Shown here piece by piece: positions 43,101-49,100 of a DNA stretch of 64,000 bases; the first letter of the stretch is position 1, and every line of letters starts with the position of its first letter. Made by a program: the position numbers and the translations under genes. The DNA comes from Sipunculus nudus (lineage: Eukaryota > Annelida > Sipuncula > Golfingiida > Sipunculidae), in NCBI GenBank assembly GCA_026874595.1, contig CM049317.1:59166118-59230117 (forward strand). Reading direction: 5' to 3'. The notes beneath the pieces are model-generated. The model was not told the origin of the DNA, searched no databases, and saw nothing but the letters and a program-made list of their open reading frames with translations.

Positions 43101-46100
43101 CAGCCAATGCAGAGAATACAAAATTGGTGTAATGTGATCTGATTTTGAAGCACCCGTAATAATCCTTACTGCGGCATTCTGTATACTTTGCAGTACTTTG
43201 ATATAATCAGATATTTTTTTTCTTTCAGAGTACCTATGATATAATCAGATATTTGTTTGCTTTCAGAGTGCCTATGAAAAAATCAGATTTTTTTTTTTTC
43301 TCATTGCCTATGATATAATCAGTAATTTTTTCCCTCAGAGTGCTATGATATAATCAGATTTCTTTTTTCTTTCAGAATGCCTATGATAAAATCAGATATA
43401 TTTTTTATCTTTCAGAGTGCCTATGATAAAATCAGGTATATTTTTATTTCAGAGTGCCTATGATAAAATCAGATTTTTATTTTTATTTCACAGTGCCTAT
43501 GATATAATCAGATTTTTTTTTTTCTTTCAGAGTGCCTTTGATAAAATAAGATTTTTTTTTTCCTTTCAGAATGCATATGATACAATCAGATTTTTTTCAT
43601 TTCAGAGTTCCTTTGATAAAATCAAAATTTTTTTTTTCTTTCAGAGTCCCTTTGATAAAATTATTTTTTTTTTTACTTTCAGAGTGCTTATGATAAAATA
43701 AGATATTTATTTCTTTCAGACTGCCCATGATACAATCAGATATTTTCTTTCTTTCAGAGTGCCTATGATACATTCAGATATTTATTTCTTTCTGGTGCCT
43801 ATGATACAATCAGATATTTTTTTTCTTTCAGAGTGCCTATGATACAATCAGATTTTTTTTCTTTCAATGTGCCAATGATAAAATCAGATTTTTTTTCTTT
43901 CAGAGTGCCTATGATACAATCAGATATTTTTTTTCTTTCAGAGTGCCTATGATACAATCAGATTTTTAGCTCAGCTGACTATAAGTCATCTGAGCTATAG
44001 TCGTGGTCCATTGTCCGTCGTCCGTCCGTCTGTCTGTCCGGATGTCCGTCTGTAAGACTGGCATGTTCCGACACCGTTGGACCTACAAATCTGAAATTCC
44101 GCATACAGTTAGATGTCCCCAAAATCTCCTACCATGCCAAAAATTGGGTCAATAGGACTTCGTTCCTTCGTGATATTAAGGAAAAACCTCAATTTTTTAT
44201 TAGAAATCTATTTTCACACTTCAGGACTGCTTATATCAAACCACTCATCTTGTTTTCTTCATATTTACCATAAATATTCCTCTATATAGTTCCTATGTAC
44301 ATGCCAAATATTAAGTCAGTATTATATAATTAAAAAAAGTTATGGGCCCAAACATAATGGACTTTGTAAAAAAATCAGGAAGATATTCGGTCACTTAAGA
44401 CCAAAAGTGTTAAAGGTAGGGACTTTTTTCCAATAATACAACTTTATTTATTCAAAATTTAATTGTATACCAAAAATTAGATCAAAATCTGTCAAATTTA
44501 TATTAAATATTGGCAAAAATATAAAATTGGTACCTTAAATTTTGCCCAACTTTGGCCACGGCACCTTTTTTTCCTATAAGTACTGTGGATTTAATTTTCA
44601 CAGCATGTATACATAAGGATTTAATCTGTTAAAATCTGAAATTTGAAAATAAAAGCTGCAAAATTAGGCTAGTTATTGAATTTTTTTGGAGGCTCTTGTT
44701 GTATTCCCTTACATTGTCAAGCAGTCCACTTTGATGACTGTAGGTCATCCAGTGCACATCTCTATGCTCCCCAGGCTGTTGGCATAATTTTAAATGTCCC
44801 CAAAATTTCCTACCATATCGAAAATTGGGTCACAAGGACTTCTTTCCTTTCGAGATATTAAGGGAAAAAAAACTCCATATTCCATTAGAAAAGCCATTGT
44901 TACACTTCAAGGCTGCCTAATATCAAAACCACTGATCTGTTTTTGATCATATTTAGTATTCACATTCTTTTAATACATTTTCTATGAACATACCAAAAAT
45001 TAGGTCAGTATTCGGTATTATTTTGAAGTTATGGGCCAAAACATAATGCAATTTATTAAAAAATCAGGAAATATATTTACTCACCTAACATGAGAATTGC
45101 TGAACCTAGAGACTTTTTTTCAGGAATATAACTTTATTTAATCAAGATTCAATTGTTTACCCAAAATTAGATCTGAATTTTGCAAATTTTTCAAGTTATT
45201 AGCATAAATAAAAAATCAGTACTTTAAATTTTGTCCAACTTTGGCACTGTTGATTTAATTTTCACAGCATATATACATAAGGATTTAATCATTTAAAATC
45301 TGAAATTTCAAAGAAATTGATTGGAAAGAATAGCATTTATTCATGTTTTCATACACCATGTCAAGTGTTGTTTATATCTAGCCCAACTAGTAGTACAGCC
45401 TTCACTTGCATTATGTAACCCACCCCAGGCAGCTTGCCTTGAGTAAGCTTGGCCACTACCAGCAGGCTTTCCCTCTGCCCTGCACTCCCCCCCCCCCCCC
45501 CAGATGGTGCATAAACTAGATGAATGTTATTATTTTCTGTATTTGATTCATTCTTATTCTAGGCTATGCTAAATTTTAGATTTTGTATTGAACCACCAGG
45601 GTTACAATGATTAAAGTGTACATTTAATGGTGTCCACAAAGTGGTGTATTGCTATGCAAGTGTGGATGTTCATGAGATAAGCAATTCCTTACTTCAGAAG
45701 AGTAAAAACTTCACCAGGTGTGAAATTGACTATTAATTCCAGTAATAAATTAAAACTAGATAGTAATTAGCACAGTGATATTGTTTGTCCCTCATTCAAC
45801 CAACATTGTGTATACTTTATTTGAAAAGATGTTTTATTTTATCAAATTTACTTTTATTTTATTTTGGTGAATAAAAATAAGCATGTACTGGAAACTCCAA
45901 TGTGCAAAACATTTTAATAGTGATTCAAGGAATATTCTTGTAGATGCCATGTTGTGGCATTATTTTCTTTTAAATTCAGTTTAAACATTTATGATTTAAA
46001 AATAATAAAATATATGTGTATGCATAATATGACCCAATATGAGCTACACTCTGGATATATGATGATTGCAACTTTTGCAACAATACTAATATTTAACTTA

Positions 46101-49100
46101 TAGTTTCAGCTTTTTACTCTGTATATATAATGATTGCAACTTTTGCAACAATTCTAATATTTTAACTTATATTTTCAGGTTTTTTTTATCAAAAATTGAT
46201 AAAACCTGTAAATAAAAAAATGATTCAGATAAAAACTTCTTAATGGAAAAAGTGGATATGCTTAAAAAAAAGGATCATATATAAACTTAAATGCATTATT
46301 CCCTTGAAAGTGAAATAAAGGTATGCATCCATTCTGTCCACTTGCCTGTCCATCTGTAAATTTTTATATGCATCACAGTTTCTAAAAAAATTTTACTGTT
46401 TTTCTTCATGACAGTCTTAACAGAGTATTAGTTTGCAATCATATATTTAGAACTTTACTATAACCAAGTAGGAGGGCCCCTTTCCTCTTAGCTTTTCATA
46501 TTCTTATATAAATGAAAAACATTACAATAGAATTTTTCTACATCCACCTTCGTGCTGCCCTCACTTTTCCCTTCTCCAAACCCCATCCCAAAGTCAGCCT
46601 CAGTAAGCAAGAACAAGATGAATCAGATATATTCATACTTTAATATTTTGTATAACTATTCATCCATAAGTACATATGTACATGCCAGAAATTATGTCAA
46701 TATTGTGTAATATGTAGACATAGTGGGCATCACAATAATGTACCTTGTCAAGACTAAAGAGATATTGTGTCATACAGTCACAAATTCATAAATCACTTCA
46801 ACAGCATAGTTAATCATAACATCATATCAGTCAAATTGAAAGCTTGCAGACTACCATACACTTTACGCTCCCGAGGCAGCGGAAATCTTGTGCTTCTAAA
46901 GAAGCAACTGATTTTCACGTTGCCAGCTTTGACCGTTTATGATATATTTAGACACCAGATGGCGGTTCGTTGTCCACTGAAATAAACGTGTGTATGATGT
47001 GACAAGCAGCCAATCAGATGCCAATAAACAAACACTCGACAGGCATCCTGGCTCCGCCCATTGCTGTGCTTCAAGCGCCGCTAGAGGAGTTTCCGGTCGA
47101 ATTTAAATTGCTCCCTCTGCAATCTCGCATCATCGACTGATTCGATTATGACATTATGACTGTGTTAGCGTAGCCATGTATCTGTTGTCTGCAGAACTGA
47201 AACCAGCCAGCAAGGTGTGCACGCAGCCTTTGTTGTTACGTTTCGTTTGAATAACAGCTCACCGGCCGAGCATCCTATGTGCCCAAGGCCCTAAGCAAAC
47301 CACGTCAGGGGCAATTCTCTCTGAGCCTGTGGCCTGTTCAGACGGTTACGCTGGGGGATGAGCTGTCACTCAAAAAGAAATGAATATGATTGGCTCCGTG
47401 TATTCCTCGCTTGGCTTTGTCTTCCAGCACAAAGTCTCATCTGATTGGACAAAAATACAGTGCTCCCCTCTGGTGTTGCAATTCAGGATACAAGGTCAAA
47501 ACAAACAGCGCCTTACGATATAGGTCGTAGCCCTATATGTAAAGCGCTGTGTAAAGAGCGTACATACACTTTAGATCCTTCAACAAATAGCCTTATCATC
47601 ATTCTACTACTGCTTATTACTGCTGTCATTGCATTCATATTTGCTTAAATATATCACAATTTTCAACCCCTCCTAAATAAATAAAGAATAAACCACTATA
47701 TTTGACTCTATTAATCCATCAGTCAGGTAATTTCATTTATCATTTACTCGCATTTACATTACATTCCTTTATAATAGCCCAACATGTCAATGATATTCAT
47801 AAGCTTTATTGACTCGATAAAGTATCACAGTGGAGAAACATTTTTAGTCCAATCATGATCAGCTGAGCGCCGTGACCCATGGGTCCCTTGTTTTTTTCTT
47901 TCAGAGTGCCTATGATACAATCAGATATTTTTTTTTCTTTCAGAGTGCCTATAATGCAATCAGATTTTTTTTCTTTCAGAGTGCCTATGATACAATCAGA
48001 TATTTTCTTTCTTTCAGAGTGTCTATGATAAAATCAGATATTTTCTTTCTTTCAGAGTGCCTATGATAAAATCAGATATTTTTTTTCTTTCAGAGTGCCT
48101 ATGATGAGAAGAAAGAGTTTATATTAGCCCCATACATGAACCAGATCCATGAATTATTTGAGGGAAATACTTTAGAAGAAGTATTCAGAAAACTGGAGCA
48201 AGATGGATCAGAATGGGCTCTCAAACAACTTAATACTTTAAAGAAAATGGTAAGTCCAAGCCATATTAATGCTCAAACTCTCCAGTGTTTTAGAGAAATG
48301 CTAAATTCATTTATATCTATTAATAAACCCATATCATTGAGTTTCTTAAAGTCTTCTACTGGCTTTTGTGGTCTAGCGATAGAGTGCATAATCCAGTAAA
48401 ATCTCTGCTAAAAAGGTGAAATTATTCATAGTTGGCCCATACAGGGTAATCACTGTGCAGGTTAAATGGGAAGGCAGTGCCCAATGGCCATGTTTCACCA
48501 AAAAATATTTGTGCATTGAAAGTATCATCCATACATCCAGGGCTCGCAGGTGCAGTAGTCGGAGGGCCTGGTAAACACCAGGTTGTAAAATGACAGGAAG
48601 CGTGTGACACTGCCCTGTTATGTTAGGGCCACTAATCCTGACTGATGCAAGCTTATTTACGGTTGTGTCCTCCAGTAACCAAACAGTTTTAGAAATGAAA
48701 TATTGGCAGACACCTTAATATTTTAAGCAGAACATCATATATTGCATGTTTATTTAATATGCCAGGTATTTATAAATTTATATGATTCTATTCATTTCAT
48801 TTGTAGTCTCCCACGTCTATGAAGGTTGCATTCCGGCAGCTGAAGGAGGGAGCTAAGCTGAGTCTACAGGATGACCTTGTAATGGAGTACAGGTGCAGTC
48901 AGAGGTTCACAGAGGATCACGATTTCTATGAAGGAGTACGAGCAGGTGTGAAGATTTTATATTTTTATCGATAAATTTTTTAAAGGTTACCTGTTCCACA
49001 CTAGAAATCTGCTTTCAAGAAATGCAAGCCTCTGCCAAGTTGGGGTCCCAATAATGGGAAGCTTCTGAAACATTGTTTGCATTCACATATTCGACCCATA

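What the first reader, a model, noticed from the sequence alone, without database searches (positions are those of the whole stretch)
43201..48105. Splice acceptor of HIBCH exon 10 amplified about 26 times in the intron before it
Each 36-40-bp unit reproduces the functional 3' splice site: pyrimidine tract, TTTCAG, then AGTGCCTATGAT, identical to the first 12 bases of the coding exon (S-A-Y-D). Five units sit directly upstream of the true site and about 20 more lie 4 kb upstream. The spliceosome thus faces a ladder of near-identical acceptors. Decoys at 48056 and 48018 shift the frame. The one at 47980 is in frame (114 bp) but meets a TGA at about 48064. So any decoy use should yield a truncated reading frame, and HIBCH output would depend on choosing the last AG. 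Tandem growth of a working exon boundary is unusual, and copy number could vary between individuals.
Basis: partly seen in the sequence, partly recalled or inferred. Interest (0 to 1): 0.8.

Follow-up and report, generated by a model that had tools for sequence, protein, structure and literature searches.

The report
Tandemly repeated splice acceptor in HIBCH
In one animal's HIBCH gene, the short DNA stretch marking where an intron ends and an exon begins has been copied in tandem some two dozen times inside the intron; this is a striking case of a rare but already described kind of repeat, and whether the extra copies disturb splicing needs RNA data.

Summary
The HIBCH exon at 48094-48249 is preceded by 5 tandem copies of its own acceptor (right block, to 48093) and by 20 more at 43199-43949. 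22 of these 26 decoys keep an AG in register, and all 22 run into a stop codon if used. This is one old array cut by two later insertions: a 3.9-kb dispersed element (about 43968-47890) and a 5'-truncated LINE-like element (about 42517-43195); both have copies elsewhere in the 1.43-Gb genome. The array itself was found only here. The exon boundary is older than the array: a diverged HIBCH paralogue starts its exon at the same residue without an array. It is the kind of repeat called a 'mirage' in amphioxus. Most likely it is slippage-driven and near neutral, with splicing held at the last acceptor because only that copy leads into the full, purine-rich exon start; that step is inference, no RNA was available. 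The left block is an unlikely competitor, since it would need exons over 4 kb. New member of a known kind.

The parts
40130..40216 (+). preceding HIBCH exon (87 nt, phase 0), donor GTGAGC
42503..42516 (+). outlying array copy: AG plus exon start AGTGCCTATGAT
42517..43195 (-). LINE-like dispersed element with (AAT)n tail, 5'-truncated, inserted in the array (ends approximate)
43199..43967 (+). left block: 20 complete units of 35-40 bp and part of a cut one; 16 of 20 keep CAG at the boundary
43968..47890 (.). 3.9-kb dispersed element inserted in the T run of a unit, 10-bp inverted repeats near its ends
47891..48093 (+). right block: 5 decoy acceptors (AG ending at 47904, 47943, 47979, 48017, 48055) and the true acceptor (48093)
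48094..48249 (+).
48106..48117 (+). 12-nt purine run of the true exon, absent behind the decoys; possible exonic enhancer (inferred)

Best explanation
A 'mirage' minisatellite. A 38-bp segment covering the last ~30 bases of the intron and the first 8 bases of the exon was tandemly duplicated, with TGAT at the joints, and the array grew by slippage or unequal exchange to at least 26 decoy copies. A LINE-like element and a 3.9-kb element later inserted into it and split it. Growth is probably near neutral: splicing stays on the last acceptor because only that copy runs into the full exon with its purine-rich start, while decoys run into TGATA-AATC and the next T tract. Occasional use of one of the 5 near decoys would put a stop in the message. 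Shown: array, boundary, stops, insertions, boundary older than array. Inferred: which acceptor is used, the enhancer role of the purine run, slippage, neutrality.
For: Array and true site in register; of 8 acceptors located in the gene only this one has close copies within 5 kb. The exon start is ancestral: a paralogue 0.36 Mb away, 46% identical over 37 aligned residues, starts its exon at the same residue with AG|AGC and no array; human HIBCH aligns without gaps from the third residue. The array DNA was found only here in the genome. Both interruptions are dispersed elements whose ends fall at the array breaks. Longest purine run within 38 nt of the AG: 12 nt at the true site, 3-7 nt at the 21 CAG decoys. 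Published cases of the same layout with undisturbed splicing (passages).
Against: No RNA, second haplotype or related species could be examined. Growth polarity is weak: right-block units are more alike (mean edit distance 3.4, against 6.7 within left units 1-10 and 6.3 within 11-20), but distance to the true unit does not fall steadily along the array (Spearman -0.28, p 0.18). The copy at 42505 lacks the TGATA-AATCAGAT text upstream of its tract, so the first duplication is not reconstructed. One 23-bp, 91% match to the array was found in 60 kb around the paralogues (E 0.003), far from the paralogous exon.
Confidence: 0.8

Rival explanations
1. Functional brake: the near decoys are used at a set rate, giving stop-bearing transcripts that are degraded, so that array length tunes HIBCH output.
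For: All 5 near decoys have tract, CAG and exon start almost identical to the true site and all give stops.
Against: Stops are inevitable for a 38-bp unit that holds a stop, so they show no design; decoys lack the purine run; published mirages splice normally (passages). No RNA evidence either way.
Confidence: 0.08
2. The repeat came first: a minisatellite or dispersed repeat lay in the gene and its last unit was taken over as exon start.
For: An exon-start copy sits beside a dispersed element at 42505.
Against: That element's 7 other copies printed have other flanks; array DNA found only here; the paralogue has the same exon start position without the array; human HIBCH aligns through it from residue 3.
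Confidence: 0.04
3. Assembly artefact or wrong copy number.
For: T-rich 38-bp repeats are hard to assemble; the amphioxus draft is said to have one mirage aberrantly assembled (passage); no reads were available.
Against: Units are individually different and two unrelated insertions with shared ends interrupt the array. Exact copy number may still be off.
Confidence: 0.04

Closest known systems
'Mirage' minisatellites of amphioxus (Adh3, globins BflGb6 and BflGb9, troponin C, PGBD5); PMC3087553 and PMC3902484, abstract or passages seen
   Same: Minisatellite-like tandem copies spanning a real intron-exon boundary and carrying splice signals; BflGb6 also repeats the 3' end of an intron plus the exon start; 38 bp lies within the 10-72 bp given for Adh3 units
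Human CBS 844ins68; PMC2630376, passages seen
   Same: Duplicated intron 7/exon 8 junction; the more distal of the two sites is strongly favoured. The passage calls them donor sites, while the title of the cited Romano 2002 paper speaks of 3' splice site selection
   Different: One 68-bp duplication, polymorphic in people, with RNA evidence
Human CBS 31-bp VNTR c.1444_1467+7(16_21); PMC2630376, passages seen
   Same: 16-21 tandem units; by its name it crosses an exon-intron boundary; copy number differs between people
   Different: Donor side of an exon (from the name), known to be polymorphic
Internal tandem repeats at exon-intron boundaries in human segmental duplications; PMC2812944, passages seen
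   Same: Tandem repeats at boundaries that change gene structure
   Different: They create new introns in recent paralogues; no new intron is evident here

Membership tests
Mirage minisatellite (amphioxus sense) | tandem units spanning a real intron-exon boundary | tested here: met
Mirage minisatellite (amphioxus sense) | many, not all, units keep AG/GT splice signals | tested here: met
   22 of 26 decoys keep AG in register
Mirage minisatellite (amphioxus sense) | concerted turnover within the cluster | tested here: inconclusive
   right block more alike, but no steady gradient
Mirage minisatellite (amphioxus sense) | length differs between haplotypes | not testable with these tools
   one assembled locus only
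Mirage minisatellite (amphioxus sense) | regular splicing not disturbed | not testable with these tools
   no RNA data
Helitron2/Helentron-like element (43968-47890; features recalled) | short asymmetric terminal inverted repeats | tested here: met
   10 bp, 100% complementary, 1 base from the left end and 22 bases from the right end (one of 36 inverted pairs there, singled out by its position)
Helitron2/Helentron-like element (43968-47890; features recalled) | terminal hairpin | tested here: inconclusive
   a 4-bp stem near the end, no better than shuffles (z 0.46)
Helitron2/Helentron-like element (43968-47890; features recalled) | dispersed copies with fixed ends beside T runs | tested here: met
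   39 other scored copies (40 of 1,443 candidates scored) end at window 47892-47900; 3 of them read, each followed by a T run; left end starts at 43962-43963 in L017, L055, L028 and at window 40613 and 52236
Helitron2/Helentron-like element (43968-47890; features recalled) | autonomous partner coding Rep/helicase | not tested
   not searched
LINE-like element (42517-43195; features recalled) | simple-sequence 3' tail | tested here: met
   (AAT)n with differing flanks in the 7 other copies printed, of 19 other loci held
LINE-like element (42517-43195; features recalled) | 5' truncation and target-site duplication | tested here: met
   the 6 other copies printed, of 14 other loci held, continue with a common sequence past the break; flanks CTATGAT / CTTTGAT match at 6 of 7 bases (read)
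LINE-like element (42517-43195; features recalled) | reverse transcriptase in full-length copies | not tested
   not searched

The most novel reading that the evidence does not exclude
The array is a length-variable splicing brake: the number of decoys in the right block sets the share of HIBCH transcripts that carry a stop, giving heritable, possibly somatic, variation in valine breakdown between individuals.
Probability: 0.07. Interest if true: 0.7.

Novelty: new member of a known kind. Interest (0 to 1): 0.42.

Why it matters
It is a natural experiment in acceptor choice: six consecutive acceptors with nearly the same tract, AG and first exon bases, of which only the last leads into a full exon. 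If RNA shows that only the last is used, exon sequence rather than the acceptor itself decides. It also takes mirage repeats, which the papers seen here describe in amphioxus, to another animal genome, with two mobile-element insertions that order its history.

Tried and rejected
Dispersed satellite as the source: rejected, array DNA found only at this locus (that search skips simple repeats and very common words). Close gene duplicates as comparators: the HIBCH-like copies at C12 59.55-59.59 Mb are diverged; a counterpart of the exon was found in one of them (46% over 37 aligned residues), without an array.

Base rate in other exons: 29 exons examined with TRF: 20 of the 75 myosin-head matches, picked by me from the list, mostly with short open frames, before reading any sequence; 4 further HIBCH exons of this gene; 5 exons of its paralogues. 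In 0 of 29 did an array of more than 2.2 copies span an exon edge. Five arrays fell within 60 bp of an exon: four are units of 10-11 bp with 1.9-2.2 copies (one of them, L075, starts just inside a donor), and one, L083, is a 43-bp x 7.3 array that stops upstream of the acceptor. Too small and hand-picked for a genome rate.

Counts dropped or mended: one search lists 23 CAG sites; one in mid-unit (43777) and the true one are left out of the decoy count; its distance column is one too large and was redone. The edit-distance test used 25 units and left out the cut unit and the copy at 42505. No test was made of constraint on the decoy AGs.

Papers: full-text searches (two found none). Passages only were read of PMC2630376, PMC3087553, PMC3039753, PMC2891723, PMC3902484 and PMC2812944. 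PMC3039753 (promoter minisatellite) and PMC2891723 (intron gain by exon duplication) were not close. The 2002 Adh paper of Canestro and colleagues is not held and is known here through PMC3087553. 'Helitron2', 'LINE-like', exonic enhancer and a possible molluscan host are recalled labels; the organism was not identified.

Full report
Setting. The window is C12:59166118-59230117 of an unnamed 1,426,538,692-base genome in 153 contigs. The exon at 48094-48249 matches human HIBCH (3bpt, E 4.1e-9) and Pfam ECH_2 at 25 bits, slightly under that family's 27.2 cut-off for a whole protein.

Observation. TRF finds two 38-bp arrays, 43199-43967 and 47891-48105. In register the unit is TGATA-AATCAGATA, a T/C tract, TTTCAG and AGTGCCTA. 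There are 20 complete left units; one unit is cut between the blocks; the right block has 5 decoy acceptors and the true one. CAG at the boundary survives in 16 of 20 left units and in 5 of 5 right decoys. A further copy at 42505 follows AAG. That makes 26 decoys, 22 with an AG in register. Exact copies of the exon's first 12 bases: 12 on +, 0 on -. The same boundary test on the 7 other located acceptors of the gene finds nothing better than 15-16 of 25.

Reading-frame consequences. All 22 AG-bearing decoys lead to a stop. For the five near ones the first stops are at 48064 (three decoys, in frame at 189, 150 and 114 bp), 48102 and 48125. This is not a designed property: a 38-bp unit that holds a stop is read in all frames within 114 bases. 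The left decoys lie 4.1-4.9 kb upstream and the one at 42505 lies 5.6 kb upstream, so their use would need an exon over 4 kb or an additional donor; donors were not searched.

History. The two blocks were once one array. The 3.9 kb between them begins in the T run of a unit and ends at a T run. It has 10-bp perfect inverted repeats near its ends (43969-43978 and 47859-47868). Its right end recurs in the 39 other copies scored, out of 1,443 first-look candidates, and its left end in several loci already held and twice more in the window. The layout resembles Helitron2-type elements (recalled), but the terminal stem folds no better than shuffles. A segment at about 46866-47562 is absent from L085, L086 and L042, probably a nested insertion. 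On the 5' side, 42517 to about 43195 is a dispersed element (971 candidates, 40 scored; 165 candidates, 40 scored) with an (AAT)n tail, cut off at 43194-43195 where the 6 other copies printed continue, as in a 5'-truncated LINE on the - strand. Its flanks CTATGAT and CTTTGAT match at 6 of 7 bases, and joining the flanks restores the order exon-start, unit, tract, CAG. The copy at 42505 is therefore most likely part of the array, although the text upstream of its tract is unlike the other units.

Direction of copying. The array was found nowhere else in the genome. A diverged HIBCH-like gene at 59.57 Mb, 46% identical over 37 aligned residues, starts its matching exon at the same residue, AG|AGC, in an alignment without internal gaps, and has no array; one 23-bp, 91% match to the array lies elsewhere in the 60 kb searched (E 0.003). 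Human HIBCH aligns there without gaps from residue 3 on. So the boundary came first and was copied. The joints carry TGAT in both exon (TGATGAGAAG) and unit (TGATA-AATC), a plausible slippage homology (inference). Units of the right block are more alike (mean edit distance 3.4) than left units 1-10 (6.7) or 11-20 (6.3), but there is no steady gradient (Spearman -0.28, p 0.18).

Mechanism. Tract, AG and first exon bases are nearly the same at the true site and the five near decoys, and each unit repeats the same upstream text, so the acceptor itself can hardly discriminate. What differs is downstream: a 12-nt purine run follows the true site, while the 21 CAG decoys have purine runs of 3-7 nt. 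I infer that exon sequence, an enhancer-like run and the rest of the exon, selects the last acceptor. This is untested.

Known context. Amphioxus globin and Adh3 genes carry minisatellite-like tandem copies of intron-exon boundaries called mirages, with 6 and 3 copies in two haplotypes of BflGb6 and regular splicing reported as undisturbed (PMC3087553, abstract and passages); PGBD5 and troponin C are added in PMC3902484 (passage). [quoted passage not shown] The present case is the same kind in another gene, with more copies than BflGb6. Searches for molluscan or bivalve examples returned none that fit; the host's identity is itself not established.

Base rate. Of 29 other exons of this genome examined, 0 have an array of more than 2.2 copies across an edge. 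The sample is small and hand-picked from one family plus HIBCH relatives.

Verdict. Real, well bounded and attractive, but a new member of a known kind; the functional claim awaits RNA.

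Noticed in passing
C12:59547798-59587807 (L023-L028): Several HIBCH-like partial or diverged copies in both orientations about 0.35 Mb from the window gene; a counterpart of the exon studied here was found in only one of them.
   Followed up: partly
window 19898-21958: A 69-bp x 30 tandem array (91% matches) that is open over long stretches on both strands (283 aa on +, 177 aa on -); 69 is a multiple of 3, so an open unit stays open.
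   Followed up: no
window 13589-17993: Long open frames (244 aa on -, 537 and 333 aa on +); the + ones read like a non-LTR reverse transcriptase (label recalled).
   Followed up: no
L083 (C9:48050550-48051350): A 43-bp x 7.3 array in the intron just upstream of a myosin-head exon; it stops before the acceptor, so it is not a boundary array.
   Followed up: yes
window 46866-47562: A segment of the 3.9-kb element absent from copies L085, L086 and L042, probably a nested insertion.
   Followed up: partly
G000 C111, C113, C114, C120, C122, C126 (L003-L008): ECH_2 matches in open frames of 162-731 aa on contigs numbered far after the chromosomes, one covering the whole family (384 aa); possibly bacterial contigs in the assembly.
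   Followed up: no
window 61742-62027: A 142-bp unit present twice in tandem with 100% matches, beside an open frame at 61202-61708 that looks like an acid phosphatase (recalled).
   Followed up: no
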